From the NCBI RefSeq assembly GCF_014645655.1, contig NZ_BMMD01000003.1:1-64000 (forward strand): 64,000 bases of DNA, given 5' to 3'. The DNA is from Agromyces bauzanensis. Lineage in GTDB: Bacteria > Actinomycetota > Actinomycetes > Actinomycetales > Microbacteriaceae. How positions within the stretch are numbered: the stretch's first letter is position 1; every line of letters starts with the position of its first letter. Both the position numbers and the translations under genes were made by a program. Under the pieces are notes generated by a model, which did not search any database, was not told the origin of the DNA, and saw nothing but the letters and a program-made list of their open reading frames with translations. This document shows positions 6,032-24,175 of this stretch, piece by piece.

Positions 6032-7378
6032 TCAGTCGAAGATGCCGTCGAGGATGCTGCCGATGACGAGGCCGCCGAGGATGCCGCCCATGACGTCGGA
6101 CCCGCCGCCGCGACGCCCGCCGCCCCAGCCCTGGCCGCCCCACTGCCCAGGATCCTGCGGTCGCGATGCGTTGATGTCGCGCTGTGCCAGCTGCAGGGCC
6201 TCGCCCGCGAGGTACGCGGCGCGGCGGGCCATCGCCATCGCCTGTTCTCGGTGGTCCTCGTCGATGACGGTGACGGCCGCCGCGGACATGCCGAGGTAGC
6301 GGTCGAGGTCGAGCCGGATGCGCTCGGACTCGGCCAACCGGGTGCGGGCGTCGGCGCCGATCCAGCCACGGTGGCCGGCGATGACGTCGCGGGCGACGGC
6401 GAGCTGTCGGTCGGCGTCGTCGATCGCGTGGCGCACGTGCTCCAGCGGCGGGATCGGGCGGGCCGCGCGCTCGCGGGCCGCCGCGATCGCGGCATCCAGC
6501 CCCGCGTTCGCCTCGCGCAACCGGTCCAATTGCGTGAACGGGTCGGTGTTGACGCCGGCCGGCGGGAGGACGGCGAGAGCCGCCTGCAGGTCCGCGATCG
6601 CGGCCGTGACGGCGGGCGAGTGGGGCTCCCTGAGCGCGACCGCGACGTCGTCGCGGGAGTCCTCGACGATCGCCGCCAGCGTGGACTCCGCCCGCAGCGC
6701 CTCGACCTCGAAGGTCTCCACCGCATCGAGGAGCTTCGACGCTCGGCGCACCGATTCGGTGGATGCCTCGAGCGCGAGGTTGGCCTGCTCGCGCTGCCCG
6801 GCCTCGCGCCGCCGCTCGGCCACGCCGGCGCTGTGCTCGGCGAATCCGAGCAGCTGCTCGGCCTCCGCGGGGTTGGACTCCACCTGGGCGAGCGCCTCTC
6901 GCGCATAGCGGGCGGCGAGCCGTTCGACGGTGTCGTGGGCGTGAGGAATGCGGACGCGGAGGCGCGCGGCATCCGCCCTGACGCCGGCGATGATCTCGGG
7001 AGCCCGCCGCGCTCGCGCGATCTTCTCGGCGAGCGCTGACGTGCGCTCGTCCAGCACGTCTTCCGCCCAATCGCACAGCTGCACGATGCGCCCGTTGCGG
7101 GAACGCAACTCTTCGGCGGTGTCCGGAATCTCATCGTGATTGAGCTGGTTCAACCGGAACGCCTCGCCCAGGTGCTGCCGAACCGTGGCGAGCGCCACGC
7201 TCAGCTCCGCGGTCGCGTCGGACCCCAGCTCGGCCTGAGCGAAGACGAGCTCGTCGGCGGTGACACGGATGCGCTCGTCGGCGGCGACCAGGGCCGTGCC
7301 GGCCCGCTTCGCCAGGTCGGCGTCCTGGGCTTGCAGTTCGTGATCGTCGCGCTTTCGCTTGCCCCAGAACCCGGCCAT
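6032..7378 (-). CDS. Coiled-coil protein resembling the C-terminal half of TPM-domain proteins
   Basis: A 448-residue protein from ATG 7378. It is almost all alpha-helical and Ala/Glu/Arg-rich, with no signal peptide. The C-terminus is Gly/Trp-rich (GQWGGQGWGGGRRGGG) and ends in a hydrophobic segment (MGGILGGLVIGSILDGIF) that could insert in a membrane. Helical sequence such as LGEAFRLNQLNHDEIPDTAEE resembles the long helical tail of actinobacterial TPM-domain proteins, but the TPM domain itself is absent. TAGGAT at 7386-7391 (minus strand) ends 7 nt before the ATG, suggesting leaderless transcription. Function unknown. Confidence 0.65.
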   Translation of the reverse strand: MAGFWGKRKRDDHELQAQDADLAKRAGTALVAADERIRVTADELVFAQAELGSDATAELSVALATVRQHLGEAFRLNQLNHDEIPDTAEELRSRNGRIVQLCDWAEDVLDERTSALAEKIARARRAPEIIAGVRADAARLRVRIPHAHDTVERLAARYAREALAQVESNPAEAEQLLGFAEHSAGVAERRREAGQREQANLALEASTESVRRASKLLDAVETFEVEALRAESTLAAIVEDSRDDVAVALREPHSPAVTAAIADLQAALAVLPPAGVNTDPFTQLDRLREANAGLDAAIAAARERAARPIPPLEHVRHAIDDADRQLAVARDVIAGHRGWIGADARTRLAESERIRLDLDRYLGMSAAAVTVIDEDHREQAMAMARRAAYLAGEALQLAQRDINASRPQDPGQWGGQGWGGGRRGGGSDVMGGILGGLVIGSILDGIFD

Positions 7379-7735
7379 GCCTTCGATCCTATGGGTGCCG
7401 CTGGAAGGCCGCTGTGGAGTCGGCGGGACGCGGTTCCGACACTCGGCGGCCGTGGCCGCGCGTCGGCTCTCGACGACGTCGGCCGTCGGAGTCTCGGCCC
7501 GACAGGGGCGAAGCATCCCCCATCGATCACCTCGAAGACGATCGGGGCGGACCACACCGGCACGTCCGCCACCACGGCGGGCAGTGGCGACACCCGGCGA
7601 CGGCGGACTGCTCGCTGCAGCGGCTCGGCAGGTCGCGCGAAGGCATCCGTCCTCAACAGCCCGCCGACGCGGTGAACGCCGCACAGATCCGCCGAGGGCT
7701 GCGGATCGAGGACTCCCCGCGGCAAGGATGTCCCC
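7379..7735. other. Intergenic region between divergent genes
   Basis: Apart from the TAGGAT -10-like box at 7386-7391 for the minus-strand gene and a poor AAGGAT box 6 nt before the plus-strand gene at 7736, no gene, repeat or strong dyad was seen. Confidence 0.4.
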
Positions 7736-8989
7736 ATGTCCTGGCGAACGAGCGCGACGCGCGCGCACCTCACCCTCCGCATCGATCTCGACGGCATCGA
7801 TGATCCCATCTGGCGCTCGCTGATCCTCGATCCGACGCTCGGCCTGTCGGCCCTCGCCGAAGCGATCATGGTCGCCTTCGGCTGGACGGGCACCGGAACA
7901 TGGCGCTTCGGCACTTCGCACACGCCCTGGTGGGGGCGAGACGCCGACGCGTGGGGTTGCGGTGCGCTCACGCCGGCACGCTCACGGCATGACCACCGGT
8001 ACGGATACGACGACGAGTGGTTGGAGCCCGAGTCGGAGCCGGCCTGTCGTCGCGAGTGGACCATAGGCCAGGTCACCGACCGGTTCGACGGGCACCTCGA
8101 GTTCGAGTACCGGCAGCTCGGACTCGACGGCGAGCGCGGCGAGCGCGGCGAGACCGGCGAGACCGGCCCAATCTGGCGGCATCGCATCGCGGTAACCGGA
8201 CGGGATGCCGCATCGTCGCGATCATCCGTGCCGCGGGCGGCCATCCTCGGCGGTGCCGGCACCGTACCGCGCGTCGGCACAGAGGGCGCGTATGGCGAGC
8301 TGGGCGATCCGGCGTGGCACGAGGCCATGGCCCAGGAGTTCGAGTTGGCCTTCGGCGCGTCGTCGAACGGCATCCCGGGCTCGACCGACCGCCGCTGGAC
8401 AGCACTCGACGCCGCCACCACCGGTGCGAGCGACGCCGCTCGGCGCGCCCTGCGCATCGATCTCATCGAGCTTGGCGCCCTCGCACCCGCGCAGGCCGAT
8501 CCCGCGCACATGGCGACGGCGACGGCGCCCATCCGCGAGCTCCTCCGCTCCGCCGCCTCACCCGAGGGGATCGACCTGGCATCGTGCGGGCCTCTGGGCG
8601 ACGACCTCAGGGTCCTCCACCTCGCCCGCGTGCAGAAGGGCCGGCTGTACACCCTCGCAGTCGTCCGCAACCGACTGCTCGACGATCCCGCCGCCCTCTG
8701 GGCCGTTCTGGCCGAGCGCCTCATCAGCCCGGGTTACTCATCCTCCTACCATCGGCAGCCGGATGTCGCGGAGCTCGCGATCGATCTCGTGTGCGGCGAT
8801 CGCGACGTGCGCGACGTGCGACGCTTCGCGTTCGATGAGGCTCGCCACCGCGGCGGTCGGGGCCGACTCGGCGACGCCGACGTGAACCGGGTCAAGCGGA
8901 TGCTCTCGACCATGGGCCTCACCGACGACGACGGCCGCGGCATCCATCCGGCCGCCCGCGCGTTCGGCCTCGCGATGCTTCGGAGTTGA
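7736..8989 (+). CDS. Plasmid pRiA4b ORF-3 family protein
   Basis: A 417-residue protein from ATG 7736. The first about 150 residues fit the pRiA4b_Orf3 / IS1096 TnpR-like domain: a strand LTLRIDLDGIDDPIWRSLIL, then LSALAEAIMVAFGWTG with an F/H-rich loop (WRFGTSHTPWWG) and later LEFEYRQLGLDGE. The family is found on plasmids, beside IS1096 elements and as stand-alone chromosomal genes; no activity is established. The C-terminal 230 residues are helical with no motif that I recognise. No transposase flanks it here. Its end is 76 nt from the convergent oxygenase gene. Confidence 0.7.
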   Translation: MSWRTSATRAHLTLRIDLDGIDDPIWRSLILDPTLGLSALAEAIMVAFGWTGTGTWRFGTSHTPWWGRDADAWGCGALTPARSRHDHRYGYDDEWLEPESEPACRREWTIGQVTDRFDGHLEFEYRQLGLDGERGERGETGETGPIWRHRIAVTGRDAASSRSSVPRAAILGGAGTVPRVGTEGAYGELGDPAWHEAMAQEFELAFGASSNGIPGSTDRRWTALDAATTGASDAARRALRIDLIELGALAPAQADPAHMATATAPIRELLRSAASPEGIDLASCGPLGDDLRVLHLARVQKGRLYTLAVVRNRLLDDPAALWAVLAERLISPGYSSSYHRQPDVAELAIDLVCGDRDVRDVRRFAFDEARHRGGRGRLGDADVNRVKRMLSTMGLTDDDGRGIHPAARAFGLAMLRS

Positions 8990-9065
8990 CGCACTCGCGC
9001 GGCACGTGGGGCGTGACGCCCCCGGTCGCGCCGCGCCTCAGCCCCGAGCTCGATGTGGAAGTGGT

Positions 9066-10178
9066 TCACGAACGGACCGTGCCCGACGACGTTCGGATGC
9101 CCTCGCCCGCCCCGCCGACCGACCGGCTCGCGAGCACCCGCGCCGACTCGCGCACCGCAGCGTCGTTGCGCCGCCCGGCCCGCGACCCCGCGAGCTTCGC
9201 CGCGATGTGCTCGCCGATCGTCGTGGGCTCGTAGAGATCAGGATGCCGCGGATCGACACACGTCGGCAGCGTCGTGATGAGCGCGTCGACGTTGCCGTCG
9301 TGGAAGAACGCCGCCGACCGGCGTCGCTCGATCATGCCGTCGATGACGGGCGGCTTCACACGGTGCAGCGTCGACATCCAGCGCTCGTTCGTCCAGCGCG
9401 CGGTGACGTCGCCGAGATTGATCAGCAACGCGCCATCCGCCGGTTGCACGTCGTTCCACGAGCCGTCGCTGCCGAGCACCTGCAGGCCGCGCACCTGATC
9501 GGCCCACAGCACCGTGACGATGCCGTAGTCGGTGTGCTCGCCCATGCCGGTGAGGTCGCCGTCGAGCCGCACGTCGGTGCCCGGCGGAAGCGCGTAGTAG
9601 TTCATGCGCATCACGTCGAGCGAGTGGTCGGTGACGCGATCGAAGAATCCCGGCTCGAGGCCGAGCGCGTCGGCGAAGATGCGGGTCATCGTGCGGGCGA
9701 CACGGCCGGCCTCGGCGAAGTAGGCGCTCACGTGCGCCTCGAAGCCGTCGATGTCGGGCCAGACGTTGTCGGCGTAGTCGGGCTGCGGCAGGTCGGCGAC
9801 GTGCGGGTAGTCGTCCGCGCCCGCGCCCACGTTGAACGCCTCGAAGAAGTCGTTCATGCGGTTCGCCGGCTCGACCCCGAGCGACAGGCTCAGCGACTCC
9901 GACTTCGGCGGGGTGTACCCGCGGTTCACCGCAGGCGGCGTGCGGTATGCCTTCTTCGCGCGGAGGTCGAGCGCGAAGAACGCGTCCATCGCATCGGTCA
10001 GCCCTTGGATCACGGATGCCGCGATCCCGTGCCCGACGACCTGGATGAAACCGACCTCGCGACACGCCGCATCGACCTGCTGCGCCACGGCGGCACGTTC
10101 GACGGATGAACCGTCGCGCACGTACGCCGAGATGTCGACGAGCGGGACGTGGAACGAAATGGCGACTCCTTCCTTCAC
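9066..10178 (-). CDS. 2-oxoglutarate/Fe(II)-dependent dioxygenase, isopenicillin N synthase family
   Basis: About 370 residues. The N-terminal DIOX_N part begins VPLVDISAYV and includes CREVGFIQVVGHGI. The C-terminal double-stranded beta-helix has the iron triad H-x-D...H in GMGEHTDYGIV and STLHRVKPP, and the 2-oxoglutarate-binding R-x-S in RRRSAAFF. Members oxidise small molecules using 2-oxoglutarate, iron and O2; the substrate cannot be read here. Start choice is awkward: GTG 10178 has a weak ribosome site, while a good AAGGAAGGAG lies 5 nt before an in-frame ATT at 10160. The next gene upstream on the same strand is the HD protein, 135 nt away, so they may be transcribed together. Confidence 0.85.
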   Translation of the reverse strand: MKEGVAISFHVPLVDISAYVRDGSSVERAAVAQQVDAACREVGFIQVVGHGIAASVIQGLTDAMDAFFALDLRAKKAYRTPPAVNRGYTPPKSESLSLSLGVEPANRMNDFFEAFNVGAGADDYPHVADLPQPDYADNVWPDIDGFEAHVSAYFAEAGRVARTMTRIFADALGLEPGFFDRVTDHSLDVMRMNYYALPPGTDVRLDGDLTGMGEHTDYGIVTVLWADQVRGLQVLGSDGSWNDVQPADGALLINLGDVTARWTNERWMSTLHRVKPPVIDGMIERRRSAAFFHDGNVDALITTLPTCVDPRHPDLYEPTTIGEHIAAKLAGSRAGRRNDAAVRESARVLASRSVGGAGEGIRTSSGTVRS

Positions 10179-10312
10179 TCCGCGCGGGCCATCGAGCCCG
10201 GCAGATGACACGTGTGAATGCTTGTGTCGAGCATGCCGGGCGGGTGTTTCAGAAGCGTTCCGAGCGGATTTCGCGAGCACGCGCGAGTCCGCTCAGTACC
10301 CGCGATGCCGCC

Positions 10313-11638
10313 TCACGCCGAGCCGAGCGCCCGGCGCGCCAATCGGTACTTCTCGATGAGTCGCAACTGCACCTCGTAGTCGAGGCGGCGCAGGCGCCAG
10401 CGCGCGGTGTTGTCGTCGATGTCGGCGAGCTTCACGCGGCGCGCGATCGGGTTGACGCGAATCCGCGCGTAGTACTCGTCGGACGCGACATCCGGCGTGC
10501 GCGTGAGCAGCTGCACGACGTCGATGATCTCGGGGAGCACACCTGCCTCGAACAGCTCCTGCGCGGTGATCGGCGTGTCCTCCAGCACGTCGTGCAGCCA
10601 CGCGGACGCGGCTTCGATGGGCTCAGTCGCCGGATCGAATCGCTCGGCGATGCGTCCCGGATGGTCGACGTACGGCGCACCGTTCCGGTCGAGCTGGCCG
10701 CGGTGCGCGATGAACGCGATCCCCCGGGCCAGCGCCACCTGCTCGATGGCGTCGCTCGCCGGCAGCGCCGCGGGCGGCGAGGCGGGCGTGGCATCCGGCT
10801 CGGTCGCGCCGGCGACGTCTGGGGTGGATGTCGCGCCGGCGGCGTCTGGGGCGGCTGTCGCGACGCGCGGCACTTCGAAGGTCGACCGCCTCGCCGCCAG
10901 CACGATCTCCTCGAATTCCTCGGTCACCCGGTCCACCTCCTCGGCCTCGGTCGGAGCCTCCGCCGATTCGCCTGCTCCGGCATCCGTCGCCATCTGGTTC
11001 TCCTCGGAATCCGTCTCATCATCGGTCTCGGGCTGGACGGGGGCGTCCTCGGCGGTGGCATGCGCCGGAACGGGATGCGCCGCGTCATCCGGGCCCGGCT
11101 CCGCCGCAGCGTCCGCCTCCGGGCGCGGCTCCGCCTCGACCTCCTGCGCCTCGGCCCCGGCTCCCGTCGCCTCGGCCGCCGCCTCCGCGATCGGATCCCG
11201 TCCCCGCACCGGGCGCACGAACCGCAGCTCCGCCTCCAGCTCACCCAGCTCGCGTTCGTCGAGCTCGAGCAACGACCGGGCCCCGCCTTCGCTTCGCCGC
11301 TCGAAGGCGCCCTCGTCGAGCTCCACCAACCTGACGCCATCGCGCGTCGTGAAGTAGCGCCGTCGAGCGCCATCCGTGACCGCCACGATGACGGCGTCGA
11401 ACTCACCGCTCGGCTCCAGGCTGCTCAGGAAGTACTTGGGACGATCGGCGATCGGATTCCGCGGCCCCTCGACGGGCGGGATCTCGACCGGCTGGGCGTG
11501 GGCTCCGCCGTGCGTGCCCTCGTCACGGCCGTCCCCATCGTCGAGCTCATGGAGCTCGTCGATGCCTGCCACCTCGTCGGGCCAGGCCGCGGGCAGGACG
11601 AACCCGGACTCGGGCTCATCGTCGAATGGGGCGGTCAA
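10313..11638 (-). CDS. HD-domain protein, SpoT/Mesh1-like putative alarmone hydrolase
   Basis: About 441 residues from TTG 11638, chosen because GGAG lies 5 nt upstream. The N-terminal about 160 residues are acidic and contain a compact region (PKYFLSSLEPSGEFDAVIVA, RYFTTRDGVRLVELDEG). A long Ala/Glu/Pro linker follows. The last about 140 residues are an HD phosphohydrolase: AHRG, AWLHDVLEDTPIT (the HD pair) and KLADIDDNT, matching the metal-binding pattern of the hydrolase half of RelA/SpoT and small alarmone hydrolases. No synthetase or TGS domain is present. Cleavage of (p)ppGpp is a family-based inference; other nucleotides are possible. Confidence 0.7.
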   Translation of the reverse strand: MTAPFDDEPESGFVLPAAWPDEVAGIDELHELDDGDGRDEGTHGGAHAQPVEIPPVEGPRNPIADRPKYFLSSLEPSGEFDAVIVAVTDGARRRYFTTRDGVRLVELDEGAFERRSEGGARSLLELDERELGELEAELRFVRPVRGRDPIAEAAAEATGAGAEAQEVEAEPRPEADAAAEPGPDDAAHPVPAHATAEDAPVQPETDDETDSEENQMATDAGAGESAEAPTEAEEVDRVTEEFEEIVLAARRSTFEVPRVATAAPDAAGATSTPDVAGATEPDATPASPPAALPASDAIEQVALARGIAFIAHRGQLDRNGAPYVDHPGRIAERFDPATEPIEAASAWLHDVLEDTPITAQELFEAGVLPEIIDVVQLLTRTPDVASDEYYARIRVNPIARRVKLADIDDNTARWRLRRLDYEVQLRLIEKYRLARRALGSA

Positions 11639-11872
11639 CCGAACTCCAGGAGGCTGCCGGTCCGTCGTGTCGGCGGACCGGGGTCGGACGGTCGTCGGAT
11701 TCTGATTCGGATGCGGCGGGAGGGCCCCCACGCACCATCGATGGTACGGGGTGCACCCCGGCCGACAGGTCCGCCGCCGCGGCACGGCGGAACTTCGCGG
11801 GCCACCGGGCCGCGCCGCGCCGCCACCGCGCGCTGAGCGGGTACTGCTCGGGCCACGCCGCACCGCGCCGAC

Positions 11873-12298
11873 TCAGTCCGGCCGCTCCCACGTCACCCCG
11901 GGAAACCGTCCGAAGTCGCTGTGGAACGTGACCACGCTCGCCCGGTGCGCCAGCGCGAGTGCCGCGAGGTGGGCGTCGTTCACGAGGTTGCCGCCGCGAC
12001 CGGTGGCGTCCAGCAGCTCGCGCAGCCGCGCGGCATGCCGCGCGTCGGGTTCGGGAGCCACGACGGCCGCGGCTGCGAGCCATCCGTCGACCACATCGAG
12101 CGCCTGTCCGACCTGCAGTGGGTGCTCGTACACCGACGGATGCGTCACCAGCCGCACGAAGGCGAGCAGGCTCACCCACGGCATCAGCACCGTCTCGGGT
12201 CCGGCGATGGCGGCGTCGAGCCACGCCTTCGCCACCCGATGATGCTCCGCTCCGCGGTCGACCGCGTAGAGCAGCACGTTCGCGTCGACGAGCTTCAT
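11873..12298 (-). CDS. vapC: PIN-domain toxin, VapC family
   Basis: A 141-residue protein from ATG 12298. The PIN motifs are in order: MKLVDANVLLYAVD (first Asp), SLLAFVRLVTHP in the middle, and later NLVNDAHLAALALAH followed by VVTFHSDFGRFPGV, giving the conserved acidic residues that bind Mg2+ for RNA cleavage. It begins 40 nt after the antitoxin gene on the same strand. VapC toxins cut tRNA or rRNA when released from VapB. The length is normal for the family. Confidence 0.88.
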   Translation of the reverse strand: MKLVDANVLLYAVDRGAEHHRVAKAWLDAAIAGPETVLMPWVSLLAFVRLVTHPSVYEHPLQVGQALDVVDGWLAAAAVVAPEPDARHAARLRELLDATGRGGNLVNDAHLAALALAHRASVVTFHSDFGRFPGVTWERPD

Positions 12299-12338
12299 CG
12301 GGCGCCGCGCACCGGACGGAGCGGCCGAGCGCCGCGAC

Positions 12339-12593
12339 TCACTTGCCCTGCTCCCGCTTGCGCAACAGCTGCTCGTCCTCGAGCTCGGCCGCCAGCGCCG
12401 TCGCACGGTCGAGCGGCAGCCGCGCGTGGCCGAGGTCGAACGTGGGCGTCTCGACCGGTGCCCCACGCTCGGCCGGGGCGAGGCCGGCGACGATCGCGAA
12501 GTTCACCGCGTCCTTGAACGACAGCCCGCGCTCGCGCATGACCCGGCGCACGAGTGCGTCGGCGTCGGGCGTCAGCGTGATGGTCGTGCGCAC
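12339..12593 (-). CDS. vapB: VapB-type antitoxin
   Basis: An 84-residue protein from GTG 12593. The N-terminus MRTTITLTPDADALVRRVMR and RGLSFKDAVNFAIVAG fit a ribbon-helix-helix DNA-binding antitoxin; the C-terminus (LPLDRATALAAELEDEQLL) should bind the PIN toxin. TAGGAT at 12600-12605 (minus strand) ends 6 nt before the GTG, so the operon is probably leaderless and autoregulated. It is divergent from the Wadjet operon, 178 nt away start to start. Confidence 0.85.
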   Translation of the reverse strand: MRTTITLTPDADALVRRVMRERGLSFKDAVNFAIVAGLAPAERGAPVETPTFDLGHARLPLDRATALAAELEDEQLLRKREQGK

Positions 12594-12771
12594 GGATGCA
12601 TCCTAACATCACGAGCGCTGCATCACTGCATCAGGGTTGAGGCCCCGGGCGGTCGTCGGTTCGCCGCGAGGTCGGCGCGGAACCGACTCGACGATGTCGG
12701 CGGCATCCCGCAAGATGGTCTGGGGTCGTGGCCCCATCACCCTTCGAGACCGACCACACGAGGCATCCGTC
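12594..12771. promoter_or_regulatory. Shared divergent promoter region of vapBC and jetABCD
   Basis: Contains the vapB -10 (12600-12605, minus strand). A GAGG site 8 nt before the jetA ATG implies a leadered transcript in the other direction. An RHH antitoxin bound here could affect both operons; no clear operator palindrome was identified. Confidence 0.45.
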
Positions 12772-14223
12772 ATGTCCACCCTCAGCCAGGCGCTCACGCT
12801 CACGAGCCTGCTCGAGTCGGATGCCACGTGGCGCCTGCTGCGGGCCGACAACGCGCCCATCATCGTCGCGATCCTCCACACGCACCTGGGCGGTGAGGAG
12901 CGCCGACTTCCGAGCGAGGAGTTCTACGATCGCATCGAGCACGACCTCGAGGAGTTGCGCGCCCACGGCTTCGACCTGCCGCTCTCGGCGCAGGGGTACT
13001 GCGGCGAGTGGCGTCGGGCCGGCTTCCTCACCCGCCGACCCGACGAGGAGTCGCGGGGCGAGACGTTCGAGCTCTCGCCAGCCGCGCACGGCGCCCTCCG
13101 CATGCTCGACCAGTTGTCCGCCCCGCGACAGACCGTCACCGAGTCGCGGCTCGCGAGCATCGCCGGACAGCTCGCGCAGCTCGCCGTCGACTCCGATCCC
13201 GACACGGTGCGACGGCTCGAGCAGCTGTATGCGCAGCGCGATCGCCTCGACGCGCGCATCGAGGCCATCAACGCCGGCGAAGCCGACACGATCGACCCCG
13301 ACCGTGCGATCGAGCGCGTGCGCGACATCCTCTCGCAGGCGGCCGACATCCCCACCGAGTTCGCCCGGGTCCGCGCCGAGTTCGAGGCGCTGAACGCCGA
13401 CCTCCGGTCTCGCATCGTCGAGTCCGATGACTCGCAGCGCGCCGTGCTTGACGAGGTGTTCCGCGGCGTCGACCTCATCGCCGACTCCGACGCCGGCCGC
13501 AGCTTCGCGGCGTTCTCGACGCTCGTGCTCGACCCCGAGGTCGGCGAGGCGTTCGACGACGACATCCGCCACGTGCTCGACCGCGACTTCGCCGACGGGC
13601 TCTCCAGCGCGGATCGCCGATTCCTGCGTCGCTTCATCGGCACGCTGAAGGAGGGCAGCGGCGAGATCCACCAAGTGATCACGGCCTTCGCGCGAGGCCT
13701 CCGCCGGTACGTGCAGTCGCAGGACTACCAGCGCGACCGCGTGCTGCGCCGACACATCCGCGACGCGCTGGCGGCCGGCATCCCGGCCGCCGCCCGTACC
13801 AAGCCGTACCACCCGACCGAGCTCGACCTCGAGCTCTCCGCGGTCGCCCTGGGCAGCGGCGGCGCCATCCGGCTGCACGACCCGGCCGAGCTCGACGCCG
13901 CGCGCCCGATCCGCCGCCACCTCGCCGCCGTCGCAGACCTCGACCGGCTCCGCGCCCTCGCACGCGACACCGAGATCGACTTCGCGGAGCTCACCGCCAA
14001 CGTCAACGCCGCACTGGACGACCGCGGGTCGTGCACCGTCGCCGAGGTGCTCGAACGCTTCCCCGCGACCCAAGGCGTCGCGAGCGTGGTGGGCCTCATC
14101 TCGCTCGCCGCCTCGCAGGGCGTGCGCACCGACGACGTCGAGATCGTACGATGGCCCGGACCCGACGGCGCCGGCCGCCTGGCCGAGGTTCCCGCGTATC
14201 GATTCTCCGGGAGGGTCGCATGA
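12772..14223 (+). CDS. jetA: Wadjet anti-plasmid protein JetA (DUF3375)
   Basis: A 483-residue protein from ATG 12772, the kleisin-like subunit (MukF/MksF analogue) of the Wadjet SMC complex. The DUF3375 signature is visible at the start (ESDATWRLLRADNAPIIVAI LHTHL) and in the central helical part (ARVRAEFEALNADLR, SRIVESDDSQRAVLDEVF), followed by a winged-helix C-terminal part (CTVAEVLERFPATQGVASVV). Length matches known JetA proteins. First gene of a four-gene operon with 4-nt ATGA overlaps, which fixes the order jetA-jetB-jetC-jetD of type I Wadjet. Confidence 0.93.
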   Translation: MSTLSQALTLTSLLESDATWRLLRADNAPIIVAILHTHLGGEERRLPSEEFYDRIEHDLEELRAHGFDLPLSAQGYCGEWRRAGFLTRRPDEESRGETFELSPAAHGALRMLDQLSAPRQTVTESRLASIAGQLAQLAVDSDPDTVRRLEQLYAQRDRLDARIEAINAGEADTIDPDRAIERVRDILSQAADIPTEFARVRAEFEALNADLRSRIVESDDSQRAVLDEVFRGVDLIADSDAGRSFAAFSTLVLDPEVGEAFDDDIRHVLDRDFADGLSSADRRFLRRFIGTLKEGSGEIHQVITAFARGLRRYVQSQDYQRDRVLRRHIRDALAAGIPAAARTKPYHPTELDLELSAVALGSGGAIRLHDPAELDAARPIRRHLAAVADLDRLRALARDTEIDFAELTANVNAALDDRGSCTVAEVLERFPATQGVASVVGLISLAASQGVRTDDVEIVRWPGPDGAGRLAEVPAYRFSGRVA

Positions 14224-14945
14224 ACGACGAGCTCGAGTCGCCGGATGCCGCGAGCCCCGCGCCGCCCGACCGAGTGCCCGCGTCGAGCGATGCGGATGCC
14301 GCATCCGCCGCCCTGTGGCCGGGCGACGCCGGCGAGCTCCGCGAACCGTCACGCCGAGCGCTGCTCGAACTGGTCAAGGGCCCGTACCTGTCTGGCACGA
14401 AGTCGCCGGCGCTCTGGTCGGCGCTGCTCGCCGATGAACCCTCGATCCGGTCGCGACTGCACGAACTCTTCCTCGACCTCGTTGTCGACCGCATCGGCGA
14501 GTTCGCGTTCGTGCGCAACGTCGACGCGGGCGAGCTGGCGACGCCGACCACCGTCCGCACCGAGTCGCTCACCTTCCTCGACACGGCGATGCTGCTCGTG
14601 CTCCGGCAGATGCTGCTCACCGCCGAGGGCGAGGGCCGGGTCATCGTCGGGCAGGACGAGGTGTTCGAGCAGCTGCACGTCTACCGCACGGCCGACCGCG
14701 ACGAACACGACTTCGCGAAGCGCCTGAACGCCTCGTGGGGCAAGATGCAGAACAAGCTCCGGGTCATCCACAACGCCGGCGACGACCGCGTCGAGATCTC
14801 GCCGGTGCTGCGCCTCATCGTCGACGCCGAGCAGGTGAACGCGATCGCCGCCGAGTACCGGCGCATCGCCGGGCTCGCGCCTGGAGCCGAGACAGCAACG
14901 GTAGCGGATGCCACGAACGACGCCGACCGCGAGGAGATCGCATGA
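14220..14945 (+). CDS. jetB: Wadjet anti-plasmid protein JetB (DUF4194)
   Basis: A 241-residue protein whose ATG overlaps the jetA stop (ATGA). After a low-complexity N-terminus of about 40 residues, the DUF4194 body runs from LLELVKGPYLSGTKSPALW to the C-terminus, with VDRIGEFAFVRNV, LLVLRQMLLTAEGEGRVIVG and NASWGKMQNKLRVIHNAGDD. JetB is the KITE-type subunit (MukE/MksE analogue) that binds the JetA kleisin and links it to the JetC ATPase dimer. Its gene overlaps jetC by 4 nt. Confidence 0.92.
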   Translation: MNDELESPDAASPAPPDRVPASSDADAASAALWPGDAGELREPSRRALLELVKGPYLSGTKSPALWSALLADEPSIRSRLHELFLDLVVDRIGEFAFVRNVDAGELATPTTVRTESLTFLDTAMLLVLRQMLLTAEGEGRVIVGQDEVFEQLHVYRTADRDEHDFAKRLNASWGKMQNKLRVIHNAGDDRVEISPVLRLIVDAEQVNAIAAEYRRIAGLAPGAETATVADATNDADREEIA

Positions 14946-17900
14946 CGCTGCTCGAGCTGCCGCAGTGGGCGGAGGGCCCCGACGAGACCGCCGAGTCCAC
15001 CGACGCCGCGGCGGGACCGGTTGCCGTCATCCACCCCGGACAATGGCGCCTCGCGAGGATCGAGGTGCTGAACTGGGGCACGTTCGACGGACTGCACCGC
15101 ATCGACGTGGCGCGCCTGGGTCACCTCGTCACCGGCGCATCTGGGTCGGGCAAGTCGTCGCTGCTCGACGCCGTCGCCACCGTGCTCACGCCCGACCGTT
15201 GGCTTCGCTTCAACGCGGCCGCGCAGGACGCGTCGGCACGCGGCGACGACCGCACCCTCGTCAGCTACGTGCGCGGCGCCTGGAGCAAGGAGGCCGACGA
15301 GACGCTCGACCGGGCGATCAGCACCTACCTTCGCCGGGGCGCGACGTGGAGCGGCATCCTGCTTCGCTTCGAGAACCAGCGCGACGTCCCGGTCACGCTC
15401 GCGCGGCTCTTCCACCTGAAGGGCACGAGCGTCGACCGCGCCGACCTGAAGGACGCCTGCGTCGTCGATCGCGGCGACCTCGAGATCACTGACTTCGAGG
15501 AGTTCGTGGCGCACGGCATCGAGGCGCGGCGCATCAAGGCCGCCTGGCCCGACGCGGTCGTCACGACGAGCGGTTCGCACGGCGCGTTCTACGCGCGGGC
15601 GCGACGCCTGCTCGGCATCGGCAGCGAGCACGCCCTGCACCTGCTCCACAAGACCCAGTCGGCGAAGAACCTCGGCAGCCTCGACCACCTGTTCCGCACG
15701 TTCATGCTCGACCGGCCGACGACCTTCGAGCGCGCCGACAACGCGGTCGAGCAGTTCGGCGAGCTGAACGAGGCGCACCGGCACGTCGTCGACCTGCGGC
15801 ACCAGGCCGAGCACCTCCGCGGGGTCGCCGCATCGATCTCGGAGTACGATCGCGAGGCCCGCACGGTCACCGAGCTCGAGCGACTCACCGCCCTCATCGA
15901 CGTGTTCCAGCGCAGGTTCGCGCTTCGCCTCGCCGAGGACGCCCGCGGCGAACTGGTCGCCGAGCACGCGCGTGCCGACGATGCGGCCCGGCGCGCCGAG
16001 GCCGAACGCGACGCCGCCGACGAAGCCAGGCGCGAGGCCGAGCGCCGCGAACTCCAGCTCGGGGGCTCCGACGCGCACCTGCTGCAGGCGCGCGTCGAAG
16101 ACGCGGCGGCCGCTGCCGCCGCGACGGCGTCCCGGTGGGCCGGCTTCGCCGAGGAGCTCGCCTCGGTCGGCATCGACACTCCGCCGACGGATGCCACGGA
16201 GTTCGCCGAGTTGGGCGACACCGCGCGCCGCGCGCTCGCCGAAGCCGGCCCCGCCTCGGTGCACGAACGTCCCGAGCTCACCCCCTACTTCGAGGCGAAG
16301 CAGGAACTCCGCCGGATCGACGCCGAACTCGAAGCGCTCAAGCAGCGCAAGAGCAACCTGCCGGCGCCGCTCCTGCTCGCCCGGCGCGAGCTCGCGAACG
16401 CGCTCGGGCTCCCCGAGTCGGCGCTCCCCTTCGGCGGCGAGCTCATCGAGGTGCTGCCCGAGTTCGCGGGTTGGACCGGCGCGATCGAACGCGTGCTGCA
16501 CCCGATCGCGACGGCGCTCCTCGTGCGCGACGAGCACCTGCCCGAGGTGCGCCGCCGGGTGGAGTCGCGGAATCTCGGCGCGCGCCTGGTGTTCGAGGCG
16601 GTGCCGCCCACCGCCGATCGGCCGCGTCCGACGCGCACGCCGAAGCCGCTGTTGCACCGCATCAGGGTCTCAGACGGACCGTTCGGCGACTGGCTGCGCT
16701 GGCGGCTGTCGAGCGAGTTCGACGTGTCCTGCGTCGACCACCCCGACGAGTTCGACTCGGTAGAACGGGGTGTGACGATCGGCGGCCAGCTCAAGCGTTC
16801 GGCGCGCCGATACGTCAAGGATGACCGCCACGCCGTCGACGACCGCCGGCACTGGGTGCTCGGCGCCGACAACTCCGCGAAGGTCGAGCTGCTGATCGCC
16901 CAGCGCCGCGACGCCGAGCGCCGGCACGGTGCGGCCGAGGCCCGGCTCGAGCACGCCCAGCGCGAGGCGAATGCCGCCGCCGCACGACGCGGGGTCTTCG
17001 AGCGCGTGCTGCGCCAGGCGTGGCCCGAACTCGATCGTGCGGCCGCCGACGCGCTCCTCGCCGAGCGGCGGCGGCAACTCGAGGCGTTCACCGCCCGCAG
17101 TGTGGAGCTGCAAGACGCCGTCGCCGCCGCCGACGCCGCGCGATCCGAGCTCCGTCGACGCGCCGGCGAAGCACAGTCGACCGGCGCTCGGCTGCAGATC
17201 GCCGCGGAACGGTTGCGCGAGGTCGAGTCGCAGATCGCCGAGCTCACCGACCTCGTCGCGGCATCCGCGCTCGATGATACGGATGCCGCGGACCTCGAGG
17301 CCCGCTACCGCTCCGTGCAGCGCAAGATCGACCGCGCGAATGTGGGCGATGTCGGACGGAAGGTGTCGAACGCTCTCCACCAGGAGGTGTCCGCGGCATC
17401 CAGCCGCCGGGCACGCGCGCAGGCCGCGTTCACCGAGGGCGCCGTCGCGTTCGCGACCCGGTGGCCCGCCGCCGCCGCCGACCTGACGACCTCGATCGAC
17501 GACCGCGCCGGCTACCGGGCGGTGCTCGACGGCATCGAGTCCCGCGGGCTGCCCGAGCACGAGGAGAACTTCCTGCGGCTGCTGCGCGAGAAGTCCCGCG
17601 ACCTGATCGGCTACCTGCTCGCCGACATCCGCGATGCTCCCAAGCAGATCGCCGAGCGCATCGTGCCCGTGAACGCCTCGCTCGGTCGTTCGCAGTTCGA
17701 CGTCGACCGGTACCTGCGCATCGACGCGAAGACGAGGCGCACGCCCGAGGTCGACGCGTTCATCGCCGATCTCAAGGCCGTCGTCGACGGCAACTGGTCG
17801 GATGACGACGTGTCGAATGCCGAGCGACGATTCGCGGTGCTCGAGCGGATCATGCGCCGGCTCGGCTCGAGCGAGCACGCCGACCGGCTCTGGCGCCAAC

Positions 17901-18307
17901 GATGCCTCGACACGCGCGAACACGTGACGTTCATGGCCAAGGAGGTCGACCGCGGCGGACGCGTCGTGAACGTGCACGACTCCAGCGCCGGTCTCTCGGG
18001 CGGCCAGCGCCAGAAGCTCGTCATCTTCTGCCTGGCGGCGGCGCTGCGCTACCAGCTCACCATCGACGAGGAGGCGTTGCCGACCTACGCCACCATCGTG
18101 CTCGACGAGGCGTTCGACAAGGCCGACAGCCGGTACACGCGCATGGCCATGGACGTGTTCACCGAGTTCGGGTTCCACATGATCCTCGCCACCCCCGAGA
18201 AGCTCCTCCAGACGATCGAGCCGTACGTCGGCGCGGTCACGTCGATCACCAACCCGTCGCGCAAGGACTCCCAGATCGCCAACCTCGTGTTCCACCGGGA
18301 GAACTGA
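14942..18307 (+). CDS. jetC: Wadjet SMC-like ATPase JetC
   Basis: A 1121-residue SMC/MukB-type ATPase. Walker A is at residues 65-73 (GASGSGKSS); the ABC signature LSGGQRQK begins at residue 1018; Walker B is at about 1051-1056 (TIVLDE), followed by AFDKADSRYTRMAMDVF. Between them lie long Ala/Arg/Glu-rich coiled coils interrupted near the middle by a globular hinge-like part (about 420-640, including LPFGGELIEVLPEFAGWTGA and RHWVLGADN). All ATPase motifs look intact. JetC dimers extrude DNA loops and recognise small circular DNA so that JetD can cleave it. ATGA overlap with jetB; jetD follows 3 nt after the stop codon. Confidence 0.94.
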   Translation: MTLLELPQWAEGPDETAESTDAAAGPVAVIHPGQWRLARIEVLNWGTFDGLHRIDVARLGHLVTGASGSGKSSLLDAVATVLTPDRWLRFNAAAQDASARGDDRTLVSYVRGAWSKEADETLDRAISTYLRRGATWSGILLRFENQRDVPVTLARLFHLKGTSVDRADLKDACVVDRGDLEITDFEEFVAHGIEARRIKAAWPDAVVTTSGSHGAFYARARRLLGIGSEHALHLLHKTQSAKNLGSLDHLFRTFMLDRPTTFERADNAVEQFGELNEAHRHVVDLRHQAEHLRGVAASISEYDREARTVTELERLTALIDVFQRRFALRLAEDARGELVAEHARADDAARRAEAERDAADEARREAERRELQLGGSDAHLLQARVEDAAAAAAATASRWAGFAEELASVGIDTPPTDATEFAELGDTARRALAEAGPASVHERPELTPYFEAKQELRRIDAELEALKQRKSNLPAPLLLARRELANALGLPESALPFGGELIEVLPEFAGWTGAIERVLHPIATALLVRDEHLPEVRRRVESRNLGARLVFEAVPPTADRPRPTRTPKPLLHRIRVSDGPFGDWLRWRLSSEFDVSCVDHPDEFDSVERGVTIGGQLKRSARRYVKDDRHAVDDRRHWVLGADNSAKVELLIAQRRDAERRHGAAEARLEHAQREANAAAARRGVFERVLRQAWPELDRAAADALLAERRRQLEAFTARSVELQDAVAAADAARSELRRRAGEAQSTGARLQIAAERLREVESQIAELTDLVAASALDDTDAADLEARYRSVQRKIDRANVGDVGRKVSNALHQEVSAASSRRARAQAAFTEGAVAFATRWPAAAADLTTSIDDRAGYRAVLDGIESRGLPEHEENFLRLLREKSRDLIGYLLADIRDAPKQIAERIVPVNASLGRSQFDVDRYLRIDAKTRRTPEVDAFIADLKAVVDGNWSDDDVSNAERRFAVLERIMRRLGSSEHADRLWRQRCLDTREHVTFMAKEVDRGGRVVNVHDSSAGLSGGQRQKLVIFCLAAALRYQLTIDEEALPTYATIVLDEAFDKADSRYTRMAMDVFTEFGFHMILATPEKLLQTIEPYVGAVTSITNPSRKDSQIANLVFHREN

Positions 18308-18310
18308 TCG

Positions 18311-19489
18311 ATGGCGGCTTCCGCCGGACCGGTGCTCGTCGCCGAAGCCCGCGCTCGTGCGGCGCGTCGCGTCGAGCGCGATCAGCGCGGCTGGGCGGCG
18401 ATCGGCGACGACGGCGCGACGCTCGACATCGCGCTGCACCCGCCGACCGAACGAGACGCCCTCGCCGATCAGGCCGCAGCCATCGCGTGGGTCGAGACCT
18501 GGCGCGACGTGCACGACGCGGCGTTCGACGGCATCACGATCACGTGGGCTGAGCGCGCCTGGGCGAGCCTCGGCCGGCAGCGCGTTCCCGTGCGCTGCAC
18601 GGTCGTGGGCGCCGACGCGATCGCCGCGTTCGCGGGCCCGCGCGTCGCCCGCGAGTGGCGCCGCCTCCGCGACCGAGCGTCGCTCATCGTCGAACGATTC
18701 GCACCATCGCCGCCGCTCAGCCTCGCCCTCCGCGCCCACGGCGGCACGCTGCAACGCCTCGATGAGACGGACTTCGACATCCTGATCGGCGTGCTCGAGT
18801 GGCTCGTGCAACACCCGGCATCCGGCTACCGCGTGCGGCAGCTGCCCATCGAGGGTGTGCACTCCAAATGGCTGGGCGCCCATCGGAGCCTCATCGAATC
18901 GCTGCACGCGGCGATCACCGGCCGCGGATCGCTCGGCCTGTTGCCGCCGCCGGGGCTCATGCGCATGCGCGTGCTCGACCCGACGCTCCGGCCCGGAGGC
19001 CTGTGCGACATCACCGCGCCGATCGAGGAGCTCGCGCGGCTCCCCCTGCGGCCGCGTATCGTCTACGTCTTCGAGAACCTCGAATCCGTGGTGGCCATGC
19101 CCGAGATCGTCGGCGCCGTGGTGGTGCACGGCAGCGGGTACGCGGTGGGGCGGCTTCGCGAGATCCCGTGGCTACGCACCGCCGCGGTCGTCTACTGGGG
19201 CGACCTCGATGCCGACGGCTTCGCCATCCTCAACGCGCTGCGATCCCACGTCGACGGAGTCGTCAGCGTGCTCATGGACGAGGCGACCCTGCTCGCGTAT
19301 CGGCGCCTCTGGGTCGCGGACCCGGGGAGCGCCGCGGGAATCTCGGCGACGCGCGAGCTCCCGCATCTCACGGCGAGCGAACGAGCGGCGCTCACGCGTA
19401 TCGCCGCCGAGGGCGGCGTGCGGCTCGAACAGGAGCGCATCCCATGGCCGGCCGCGCTGGTGGCGCTGCTCGCGACTGTTCCAGCCTGA
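18311..19489 (+). CDS. jetD: Wadjet Toprim nuclease JetD (DUF3322/DUF2220)
   Basis: A 392-residue protein. The N-terminal half (ITWAERAWASLGRQRVPVRC, VREWRRLRDRA-like helices) is DUF3322. The C-terminal half is a Toprim domain related to topoisomerase VI A and carries its metal residues: E255 in YVFENLESV, and D298/D300 in YWGDLDADGF. A nicking/cleaving role on plasmid DNA is established for JetD homologues. Nothing suggests inactivation. A DUF4442 gene follows after 51 nt with its own apparent -10, so the Wadjet operon probably ends here. Confidence 0.93.
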   Translation: MAASAGPVLVAEARARAARRVERDQRGWAAIGDDGATLDIALHPPTERDALADQAAAIAWVETWRDVHDAAFDGITITWAERAWASLGRQRVPVRCTVVGADAIAAFAGPRVAREWRRLRDRASLIVERFAPSPPLSLALRAHGGTLQRLDETDFDILIGVLEWLVQHPASGYRVRQLPIEGVHSKWLGAHRSLIESLHAAITGRGSLGLLPPPGLMRMRVLDPTLRPGGLCDITAPIEELARLPLRPRIVYVFENLESVVAMPEIVGAVVVHGSGYAVGRLREIPWLRTAAVVYWGDLDADGFAILNALRSHVDGVVSVLMDEATLLAYRRLWVADPGSAAGISATRELPHLTASERAALTRIAAEGGVRLEQERIPWPAALVALLATVPA

Positions 19490-19540
19490 TCAGCACAACG
19501 GACTCGCCTTCCGGCGAGGCATCCGGCCACAATCGAACAC

Positions 19541-20026
19541 ATGCGCATGACACCCCGCCGACTCGCGATCGGCATGAGCCTGTGGATCCCGAACCTGTTC
19601 AGCGGCATCCGAGTCAAGGAGTTCTCCGACGACTGGACGCGCGCGACCGTCGAGCTTCACGTCAACGTCTTCACCCGCAACTACGTGAAGACCGCGTTCG
19701 GCGGATCGATGTCGGCCATGACCGACCCCTACTTCTTCATGCTCGTGAGGCACCAGTTGGGGCGCGACCACGTGGTGTGGGACACCCGCGGCGAGATCGA
19801 GTTCCTCAAGCCCGGCCGCGGCATCCTCACGGCCCACTTCGAGGTGCCGTCTGCGAAGGTCGCCGAACTGCGCGAGCGCGCCCGCGGCGGCGCGAAGGTG
19901 CTCGAGTGGTTCGAGACCGAGATCACCGACCGCCGCGGCGACGTCGTCGCGCGGGTTCGGCGCGAAGTGTACGTGCGCGAGAAGAAGCACGTCACCGAGG
20001 CTGGGTCGACACGCGCGACGAGCTGA
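19541..20026 (+). CDS. DUF4442 hotdog-fold protein
   Basis: A 161-residue protein from ATG 19541, with CACAAT ending 7 nt upstream. It matches DUF4442, a hotdog-fold family related to acyl-CoA thioesterases: FSGIRVKEFSDDWTRATVEL, then NYVKTAFGGSMSAMTDPYFF in the helix that usually lines the active site, and WDTRGEIEFLKPGRGILTAHF. Substrate unknown. It follows the Wadjet operon but is a housekeeping-type gene and is probably unrelated to defence. Confidence 0.8.
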   Translation: MRMTPRRLAIGMSLWIPNLFSGIRVKEFSDDWTRATVELHVNVFTRNYVKTAFGGSMSAMTDPYFFMLVRHQLGRDHVVWDTRGEIEFLKPGRGILTAHFEVPSAKVAELRERARGGAKVLEWFETEITDRRGDVVARVRREVYVREKKHVTEAGSTRATS

Positions 20027-20086
20027 GCGGATGCCGCGTCGCCGCGAATCGACGCAGGTCGCGCCCTGTCGAGGCGGGCCGCGCCG

Positions 20087-20330
20087 TCACCAGATGGTGC
20101 CGGCTCCCAGGAAGATCGAGAAGAACGCCAGGCCACCGAGCACGAGGCCGACGACCGACATGGCGAGCCCGCGCGCTCGTGCTCGGTGTCTGGGGCTTCC
20201 TGACCACGTGGATCCCGCTGTTCATCGGGCTGGTCGTCGGCGGGATCCCCGGCATCCTCGCCATCGTGTTCGGCATCCTCGGCATCGTCCGGGCGAATGC
20301 GACCGGCGGCCGGCGGGCACGGCGGGGTGG
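20087..20330. pseudogene. DUF4190-like membrane protein gene broken by an inversion
   Basis: Two pieces of what looks like one small membrane protein lie head to head. The minus strand (20161 to TGA at 20087-20089) encodes MSVVGLVLGGLAFFSIFLGA then GTIW and a stop, a typical DUF4190-type C-terminus. The plus strand from about 20167 encodes ALVLGVWGFLTTWIPLFIGL followed by VVGGIPGILAIVFGILGIVR, the typical preceding part. In an intact gene both would be on one strand in the order plus-piece then minus-piece, so a local inversion with a break near 20162-20170 is the simplest reading. No start codon or N-terminal part is found. Confidence 0.65.
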
Positions 20331-20576
20331 TAGAGGGGTTCGACCGATAGGTCATGGAAGCCTCTCGGGGAGAGCGGTGCGCGAGGGATGGCGAGGGATG
20401 GCAGCGGCGGCACGTGACGGGAGGAGAAGCCAGGACGCGCACAGGCTATCGCTGTGGATGCCGCGGCCGCAGGTCCATCCGCTCGGCCACCACTGCCGCC
20501 GAACACGCGTTCGAGCTGGCCTGCTTCATGATCGCCGCCCGCACCGGTAGCGTTCTTGATCGCGGGAGGAGCAACG
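20331..20576. other. Intergenic region
   Basis: Holds a short tandem repeat (GCGAGGGATG twice at about 20382-20402) and no recognisable gene. A GGGAGGAG ribosome site at its end serves the small gene at 20577. Confidence 0.35.
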
Positions 20577-20855
20577 ATGTGGACCGATGAAGACGGCGAG
20601 CTGCACGAGGGGCCTGTCGCCTGGCGCGAGACCGTCGTCGCCGATCACGTGCAGGCGATGTTCGAGCGGCTCGCGAAGGACTCCCGCGACCGGTACTCCG
20701 ACTGGATGGACGAAGAACTGACGGTGCTCGCCTACGCGCGCGAGCTCGTCGCCGGCGGACTCTTCGAGGAGGCCGCGTACCGCCATCGCGCGGCACCGTC
20801 GGTCGAGCTGCAGCGCGTGTCGTGGGCGTCGACTCGACCGACGCCCACGAGATGA
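20577..20855 (+). CDS. Small hypothetical protein
   Basis: A 92-residue acidic protein from ATG 20577, supported by a strong GGGAGGAG 5-6 nt upstream. Sequence: MWTDEDGELHEGPVAWRET then VVADHVQAMFERLAKDSRD and ELTVLAYARELVAGGLFEEA, suggesting two or three amphipathic helices and no membrane segment. I do not recognise a family. The C-terminal 20 residues look non-conserved in composition. Real coding is supported by the ribosome site and residue content. Confidence 0.5.
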   Translation: MWTDEDGELHEGPVAWRETVVADHVQAMFERLAKDSRDRYSDWMDEELTVLAYARELVAGGLFEEAAYRHRAAPSVELQRVSWASTRPTPTR

Positions 20856-21110
20856 CGATCACGAGGTCGCCGGCGGCGGCCAGTCGTGCATCGTGCGGTG
20901 GAAGTTGACCATCCTTCGATCGTCGCGGATCCGGTCGCTGCGATCGCGGTCACGCCGTAACACACTGGCGATCAGGGTGACGCACCGGCGGTGGGGCGCG
21001 TCCCGCGCGACATCCATCGCCCTTGTGGGATGACACAACCGACGCCGCGGGAGGGCGGATCACGTCGTGGAACCCGCACAGTTCCCCGCTGTCCGGGAGG
21101 TGCCCGGAGT

Positions 21111-23122: not shown

Positions 23123-23251
23123 CGGTCGGGGAGATTCCTCGGGAGATTCCGCCCGCGGCCGACGCATCGGCGCACGGATGCCGCAATCGCCGGGTGAACC
23201 GTCCGGTGCAGCGGGCAGCCCGTGTCAGTCCCGCTTCGGCGGGCCTGTCGA

Positions 23252-24175
23252 CTACCGGCGCTGCCCGATCGGCGCCTCATCGGGCGTCGGCGGCGCGATC
23301 GCCTCGACCGGCTCCCGCGACCTCCGTCGGGTGACGAGGTAGGAGCCCAGGAGCACCAGCACGAACCCGACGACGGTCCACACGGTGAGCCGCTCGCCGA
23401 GCACCACGACACCGGCGACCACGGCGACGGCGGGATTGACATAGGTGATCGTCGTCGCCTTCACGGGGCCGATCTCGCCGATGAGGCCCACCATGAACAG
23501 GAACGCGAGCGCGCTGCAGACCACTCCGAGCACGATGATCGACCAGATGACCGCCGCCGACGGCCACGCGGCGGGCCAGGCGCCGGTCAGCAGCACGAAT
23601 GGCACGTAGATGACGGCGGTGGCCGCCAGCGACACGGCGACCACGCCGACACCCGGCAGGTCGGACATCCAGCGCGAGAGGATCGCCGGACCCAGCGCGT
23701 ACCCGACGACCACGATCGCGACCTCGCCGACCGCCACGAGATCGGACCCCGCGACATCCAGGCCCACGAGCGCGGCGACGCCGAGCATGCCGGCGGCGAT
23801 GCCGAGCCAGTTCACGCCCGTGAGCCGTTCGGGCCGACCCATCGCGAACGCGATGGCGACACCCGCAAGCGGCACGGTGGCCAGCAGCAGCCCCGCGGTC
23901 GAGCTGGGCAGGCGCTACTCCGCCGAGCTCAGGAAGTACCACGGGATGACGATCTCGACGATCGTGTAGGCGAGCATCGGCCGCCACCGGCGCACGACCT
24001 GCACCACCTCGCGCCGGAAGAACGCGAGGGGCAACAGCAGGATCGCCGCGAGTGCCGAGCGGCCGAGCACCACCATGGCGGGCTCCAGCTCGCTCACAGC
24101 GACTTTGATGAACAGATATGGGATGCCCCATGCGATGCCCAGTGCGATGAAGAGGAACAGTCCACGACGAGTCAC
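23252..24175 (-). pseudogene. EamA/DMT-family transporter interrupted by an in-frame TAG
   Basis: From GTG 24175 the frame encodes the first helices of a 10-TM drug/metabolite transporter (LFLFIALGIAWGIPYLFIKV, VVLGRSALAAILLLPLAFF, YTIVEIVIPWYFLSSAE) and hits TAG at 23915-23917, codon 87. The same frame then runs on as RLPSSTAGLLLATVPLAGVA and covers the remaining helices to a normal end near codon 307 (VTYVNP-like YVNPAVAVVAGVVVLGERLT, characteristic of EamA repeat 2). In this family the interrupted position is usually Gln (SSAEQ), so CAG to TAG is likely. No other lesion is visible, so the mutation is probably recent, or a sequencing error. Confidence 0.85.

What the first reader, a model, noticed from the sequence alone, without database searches (positions are those of the whole stretch)
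12772..19489. Complete, apparently intact Wadjet (JetABCD, type I) anti-plasmid operon
Four genes in the canonical order with 4-nt overlaps, each with its diagnostic family features: DUF3375, DUF4194, SMC-like ATPase with Walker A (65-73), signature (1018) and Walker B (1051-1056), and a Toprim protein with E255 and D298/D300. Known biology: such systems extrude and cleave small circular DNA. In a window with many broken genes, all four are uninterrupted, which suggests selection to keep them.
Basis: partly seen in the sequence, partly recalled or inferred. Interest (0 to 1): 0.75.

Follow-up and report, generated by a model that had tools for sequence, protein, structure and literature searches.

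The report
Ordinary intact type I Wadjet operon
An actinobacterium, probably of the genus Agromyces, carries a complete four-gene Wadjet defence system, a DNA-looping machine with a nuclease whose studied relatives destroy small circular DNA; it is an ordinary member of a common family, and the same genome also holds the decayed remains of a second one.

Summary
Window 12772-19489 (+) carries uninterrupted jetA, jetB, jetC, jetD; all four hit their families and PADLOC's type I models, and the stated motif residues are present. One detail is wrong: two junctions overlap by 4 nt, jetC/jetD has a 3-nt gap. Fold comparison agrees for JetD and JetB. It is a type I Wadjet (MksBEFG) by every family test run; such systems are common in Actinobacteria. 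Plasmid restriction here is inferred.

Its jetC pieces are 94-95% identical to the intact operon of Agromyces sp. H66, beside the same two genes. The window operon is of another branch (JetC 64% to H66, 69% to Glaciibacter; AU p = 0.027 against one Agromyces clade). So one intact Wadjet remains while the orthologue of a relative's has rotted.

Verdict: real, correctly named, ordinary; modest interest from the turnover.

The parts
12772..14223 (+). jetA (kleisin, MukF/MksF-like, DUF3375), 483 aa
   Evidence: Pfam DUF3375 E 3.9e-140; PADLOC JetA1 625.8 bits, residues 1-480; PDB JetA chains, best E 4.2e-13, residues 17-315 only
14220..14945 (+). jetB (KITE subunit, MukE/MksE-like, DUF4194), 241 aa; 4-nt overlap with jetA
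   Evidence: Pfam DUF4194 E 3.2e-41; PADLOC JetB1 257.4 bits; model (pLDDT 78.4) matches 8as8_C and 8dk1 JetB, E about 1e-10
14942..18307 (+). jetC (SMC-like ATPase, MukB/MksB-like), 1121 aa; Walker A 65-73, signature 1018-1022, Walker B 1051-1056; 4-nt overlap with jetB
   Evidence: PADLOC JetC1 1289.5 bits; PDB JetC E 4.1e-79 over residues 35-1100; motifs
18311..19489 (+). jetD (Toprim nuclease, MksG-like), 392 aa; E255, D298, D300, also Y277, E373, E375; 3-nt gap after jetC
   Evidence: Pfam JetD_C and DUF3322; PADLOC JetD1 390.7 bits; MksG 8b7f E 5.3e-47; model pLDDT 94.2, Foldseek 8b7f E 1.5e-30
11873..12298 (-). VapC-family PIN toxin, divergent neighbour; judged not part of the system
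   Evidence: PIN E 6.4e-17; TIGR00028 133.8 bits, cut-off 73.6; 81% homologue in G036, where no JetD_C was found
12339..12593 (-). small partner of the PIN gene (antitoxin role inferred from position); judged not part of the system
   Evidence: no Pfam or NCBIfam hit at the limits used; 89% homologue beside the PIN gene in G036
19541..20026 (+). DUF4442 protein, right edge of the variable spot
   Evidence: Pfam DUF4442 E 1.4e-15; found in 24 of 60 genus genomes, own included; next to the 10313-gene homologue in G077 with no Wadjet between

Best explanation
A complete type I Wadjet (JetABCD = MksBEFG). JetC dimers with JetA and JetB form an ATP-driven loop extruder; on a small circle extrusion runs round the whole molecule, and JetD, a Toprim homodimer, then cuts it. 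Shown here: composition, subtype, residues and two predicted folds. Inferred from characterised type I systems (E. coli, P. aeruginosa, C. glutamicum): extrusion, cutting and plasmid restriction. The operon is most likely a horizontal acquisition, set in a variable spot between two genes that adjoin in a related species. It is the only intact Wadjet found in this genome; another, orthologous to that of Agromyces sp. H66, has decayed on another contig.
For: Profiles and subtype; solved relatives; E255/D298/D300 invariant in 26 of 26 JetDs and the ATPase motifs kept in 23 of 23 JetCs aligned; folds of JetD (pLDDT 94.2) and JetB (78.4); JetD_C in only 12 of 60 Agromyces genomes, own included; the outer flank genes adjacent without an insert in G077; relic jetC/jetD on G000:C25 syntenic with H66, one DUF3375 gene in the genome; JetC tree with the window outside the group of the two other Agromyces JetCs in it, AU p 0.027.
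Against: No experiment. JetB and JetA match solved chains only weakly by single-sequence search (E 1e-4 and 4e-13). The IFDR motif at the JetB N-terminus that contacts JetD in one studied system (PMC10586767, passage) is absent; a conserved LWxxDxG stands near the N-terminus instead, and it is also in relatives without a JetD beside them. The AU test is not strong and its group was named after the first tree was seen. No promoter-like site (0.1 expected in shuffles) or terminator-like site (1.8 expected) was found.
Confidence: 0.93

Rival explanations
1. The genes are a chromosome-organising MksBEF-type condensin, and JetD is carried along or serves copy-number control rather than defence.
For: JetB's model also matches MukE; JetABC without JetD exist in relatives, in Promicromonosporaceae beside the same downstream gene in the five loci that could be read.
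Against: JetD is present with all tested metal-binding residues; JetD_C is sporadic in the genus (12 of 60) and the operon is in a variable spot, unlike a housekeeping condensin.
Confidence: 0.08
2. The operon is intact by chance and already useless, on its way to the state of the C25 relic.
For: The relic shows that such operons do decay in this genome; its pieces still give dN/dS 0.12-0.16, so a low ratio does not prove present use.
Against: About 6.7 kb of four open frames with every tested catalytic motif kept; dN/dS 0.25-0.26 to the nearest relatives and 0.07-0.12 within close pairs of the clade (0.43 to H66).
Confidence: 0.1
3. The adjacent VapBC-like pair and JetABCD form one composite defence unit.
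For: Divergent neighbours 178 bp apart.
Against: The same pair (81-89% identical) sits in G036, a genome with no JetD_C match; neither gene matches a PADLOC model. Neighbours of the other jet loci were not searched for VapBC.
Confidence: 0.04

Closest known systems
C. glutamicum MksBEFG (type I Wadjet; MksG structure 8b7f)
   Same: JetD closest to MksG among solved chains (E 5.3e-47; Foldseek E 1.5e-30); E236, D279, Y258, E349 and E351 of MksG (PMC10123090, passages) fall on E255, D298, Y277, E373 and E375 in the alignment
   Different: 32% identical in the fold alignment; JetA, JetB and JetC were not compared with MksF, MksE and MksB
E. coli GF4-3 and P. aeruginosa PA14 JetABCD (8as8, 8q72, 8dk1, 7til)
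   Same: JetC E 4.1e-79 over nearly the whole length; JetB fold match E about 1e-10; the metal-site residues align
   Different: Distant in JetA, JetB and JetD by sequence (E 4e-13, 1e-4, 8e-7); no IFDR motif in JetB; Leu at the position of Y277 in both JetDs
Wadjet operons of Glaciibacter, Cryobacterium, Homoserinimonas, Microbacterium barkeri, Agromyces sp. H66
   Same: JetC 63-69% identical; same gene order where all four genes were found
   Different: H66 has it at another site; sites of the others were not compared. The window's JetC groups with M. barkeri, not with the two other Agromyces JetCs in the tree

Membership tests
Wadjet type I (JetABCD / MksBEFG) | Four genes jetA-jetB-jetC-jetD together in one direction | tested here: met
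Wadjet type I (JetABCD / MksBEFG) | Proteins match type I rather than type II or III profiles | tested here: met
   best PADLOC models are JetA1, B1, C1, D1; JetC2 12.3 bits, JetD3 18.2 bits
Wadjet type I (JetABCD / MksBEFG) | JetC with Walker A, signature and Walker B | tested here: met
   GASGSGKSS 65-73, LSGGQ 1018-1022, TIVLDE 1051-1056
Wadjet type I (JetABCD / MksBEFG) | JetD Toprim with metal-binding acidic residues and topoisomerase VI-like fold | tested here: met
   E255, D298, D300 in 26 of 26; Foldseek 8b7f, 7til, then topoisomerase VI 9o8p
Wadjet type I (JetABCD / MksBEFG) | JetB is a KITE protein of the MukE kind | tested here: met
   model matches JetB and MukE chains; pLDDT 78.4 only
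Wadjet type I (JetABCD / MksBEFG) | JetB N-terminal IFDR motif contacting JetD (reported for one type I system) | tested here: not met
   absent from P0002; conserved LWxxDxG instead. Known to me only from a review passage; I do not take it as defining the family
Wadjet type I (JetABCD / MksBEFG) | Cleaves small circular DNA and lowers plasmid maintenance | not testable with these tools
   needs an experiment

The most novel reading that the evidence does not exclude
Wadjet is replaced, not just gained or lost: this genome lost its resident operon (orthologous to that of Agromyces sp. H66) and kept or gained a cousin from another branch at a new site, so plasmid defence as a function was conserved across a change of genes.
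Probability: 0.45. Interest if true: 0.35.

Novelty: new member of a known kind. Interest (0 to 1): 0.22.

Why it matters
The operon itself adds one more member to a common family. The useful part is comparative: a dead and an intact type I Wadjet of one clade in a single genome give an example of defence turnover, and the relatives gathered here bear on two open points. Which residue attacks DNA in JetD: the tyrosine proposed for MksG is missing in 24 of 79 JetD rows, while two glutamates are kept in 78 of 79, all but the relic. And how a Wadjet may turn into a condensin: two separate actinobacterial groups have JetABC without JetD.

Tried and rejected
Rejected: VapBC as part of the system. 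A mobile element around the operon: one search found only short imperfect repeats and none was taken as bracketing it; the right edge alone was aligned with the G077 spot, the left edge was not, so a target-site duplication was not tested. An RNA element: no Rfam hit in 11500-21000. Led nowhere: promoter/terminator scan; first in-frame-stop scan, too strict (0 in the window), redone with looser settings: 4 candidates in the window, two supported by homologues. Mutual exclusion of two Wadjets as a rule: not supported, G041 and G059 have two jetC matches each.

Not done: neighbours of the other jet loci were gene-called but not clustered; JetC and JetA were not folded; the donor of the window operon was not identified; jetC was searched in 36 of the 59 other held Agromyces genomes only, the other 23 being covered through JetD_C; a second jetB in the own genome was sought only on contig C25 (none).

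Papers: passages of PMC10586767, PMC10123090 and PMC10482375; all others only in search listings.

Full report
What is there. Window 12772-19489 (+) holds four uninterrupted genes. Pfam, PADLOC and the PDB identify them as jetA (DUF3375), jetB (DUF4194), jetC (SMC-like ATPase) and jetD (DUF3322 + JetD_C); NCBIfam has no hit over a cut-off. PADLOC's type I models win clearly in all four. JetA/JetB and JetB/JetC overlap by 4 nt; jetC and jetD are 3 nt apart in the same frame, a small correction to the finding. The stated residues are right: Walker A 65-73, signature at 1018, Walker B 1051-1056, E255, D298, D300.

Fold. The JetD model (26 sequences, pLDDT 94.2) matches C. glutamicum MksG (Foldseek E 1.5e-30), P. 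aeruginosa JetD (7.8e-17) and, more weakly, topoisomerase VI (1.5e-4). The best TM-score by query length is 0.60, which a change in domain angle could explain; I did not test that. The JetB model (pLDDT 78.4) matches JetB of E. coli and P. aeruginosa, then MukE. A second look with VIA-align was not available.

Where it lies. The genome G000 has 93 contigs and 3.72 Mb; the window is the start of contig C3. The genus is inferred to be Agromyces: G035, of the same genus, has its jetC on a contig of the same length and at the same place as Agromyces sp. H66. To the left are a gene with a weak RelA/SpoT match (10313-11638, -; below the cut-off) and a VapBC-like pair; to the right a DUF4442 gene. 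One search mapped 12 relatives' stretches; 9 held the DUF4442 gene, and in 6 of those 9 (G073, G077, G020, G066, G033, G036) the 10313-gene homologue and the DUF4442 gene lie in this order and orientation. In G077 they are neighbours, 226 bp apart; in the other five one or more other genes lie between them, and no jet gene was among the matches. So the operon sits in a variable spot.

How common. JetD_C is found in 12 of 60 Agromyces genomes, own included. jetC matches occur in 17 of 60 genomes of the wider search, own included; of the 36 other Agromyces in it 7 match, two at 62-64% identity and the rest near 30%. In plasmids, 16 of 72,556 records match JetC (2 with one place covering 80% of the query); in phages, 1 of 50,697. 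PMC10482375 (passages) reports Wadjet in 42% of Actinobacteria. A search for papers naming both Wadjet and Agromyces found 0; that speaks for this library only.

A second, dead copy. Contig C25 holds about the last quarter of a jetC, in two frames, and a jetD with a frame break and a changed acidic site; the genome has one DUF3375 gene, the window's, and JetD_C rings twice. The jetC pieces are 94-95% identical to Agromyces sp. H66; an ATPase-like gene beside it (DUF4143 type by recall, not tested) is 95% and a 650-aa gene 78% identical, and these two stand in the same order beside the intact H66 operon. The missing 5' part can hardly be a sequencing error. The window JetC is 64% identical to H66 and 69% to Glaciibacter. 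In the 20-row JetC tree the window pairs with Microbacterium barkeri (98/99) and the two other Agromyces form their own group (100/100); forcing the three Agromyces together is rejected at p = 0.027. In the larger trees the pairing with M. barkeri and the fork above it have lower support (91/98 and 89/96; 92/97 and 92/95). The simplest history is horizontal gain of the window copy and recent loss of the other; the order is not known.

Selection. Nei-Gojobori dN/dS (own script): 0.26 for JetC and JetA against Glaciibacter, 0.25 for JetD against Cryobacterium BB307, 0.43 for JetC against H66, 0.36 for JetC of H66 against G011; close pairs within Cryobacterium 0.07-0.12 (5 comparisons). dS is high (0.66-1.38) in the comparisons with the window. 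The dead jetC pieces give 0.16 and 0.12 against H66, so a low ratio does not prove that a copy works today.

Mechanism. From PMC10586767 and PMC10123090 (passages): type I Wadjet is thought to extrude DNA loops, and JetD/MksG cuts; in MksG, E236A and D279A drastically impair the nuclease, and Y258A drastically reduces it with some activity left. By alignment these are E255, D298 and Y277 here. That the window system does the same is inference.

Two side results. First, from 93 JetD hits, 85 unique, 79 with the Toprim region covered (the window and the relic among them; close relatives count apart): E255 in 79, D300 in 79, D298, E373 and E375 in 78 each, the exception being the relic; Tyr at 277 in 55, otherwise H, F, R, T, S, N or K; 23 of the 24 without it are from Actinomycetota by record title or kinship, one (L099) is not. 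PMC10123090 says this tyrosine seems conserved in actinobacterial homologues; in this set it is not, so the glutamates look the better candidates for a universal role. Against that stands the measured effect of Y258A in MksG. I did not check that the 24 operons are otherwise whole. Second, nine loci have JetABC but no JetD seen beside them (in L077 the contig ends at jetC, and in Oerskovia jetB is named by position). JetD_C is absent from 8 of those 9 genomes; the ninth, that of L077, has one on another contig; it was found in 2 of 2 genomes chosen as positives. In the genus of G084 3 of 13 genomes have one; I did not count JetA in those 13. The tree puts the two groups apart, each at 100/100 (7 of the 9 loci in it). 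PMC10586767 already suggests that P. [quoted passage not shown]

Verdict. The finding is real and correctly named; it is a new member of a known kind and in itself ordinary.

Noticed in passing
G000:C25 (L023) 6316-8356: Decayed second type I Wadjet: 3' quarter of jetC in two frames and a broken jetD, at the site where Agromyces sp. H66 has an intact operon.
   Followed up: yes
L077, L079, L083, L086, L089, L093 (Promicromonosporaceae) and L100, L106, L107 (Oerskovia): JetABC without a JetD seen beside them; 8 of 9 genomes have no JetD_C match. The five Promicromonospora JetCs have a long Pro/Ala/Gly-rich tail, and an F420-ligase-like gene (name recalled) follows in the five Promicromonosporaceae loci whose contig goes on.
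   Followed up: partly
window 19139-19141 (JetD Y277) and 79 JetD rows: The tyrosine proposed as nucleophile in MksG is replaced in 24 of 79 JetD rows, while E373 and E375 are kept in all but the relic.
   Followed up: partly
window 14313-14333 (JetB residues 32-38): Conserved LWxxDxG motif near the JetB N-terminus in the actinobacterial clade, also in JetB of loci without a JetD beside them.
   Followed up: no
window 500-1063 and 23228-24175: Sigma-factor-like and EamA-like genes (names recalled) with one in-frame stop each (TGA 866, TAG 23915), open in the relatives compared.
   Followed up: partly
L027 3793-8178 (G028): A distant jetC of another Agromyces is split by about 4.4 kb carrying two genes that look like an IS21-type istA/istB pair (recalled, not tested).
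   Followed up: no
window 43738-47388: Large TM0106-family RecB-like nuclease with a helicase part; partial matches to several defence models.
   Followed up: no
L031 (G047) 156-791 and 7266-10613: jetB-like and jetC-like genes about 6.5 kb apart, with no jetA or jetD match to the window's proteins in the stretch; the stretch begins just before the jetB-like gene, so a jetA further left is not excluded.
   Followed up: no
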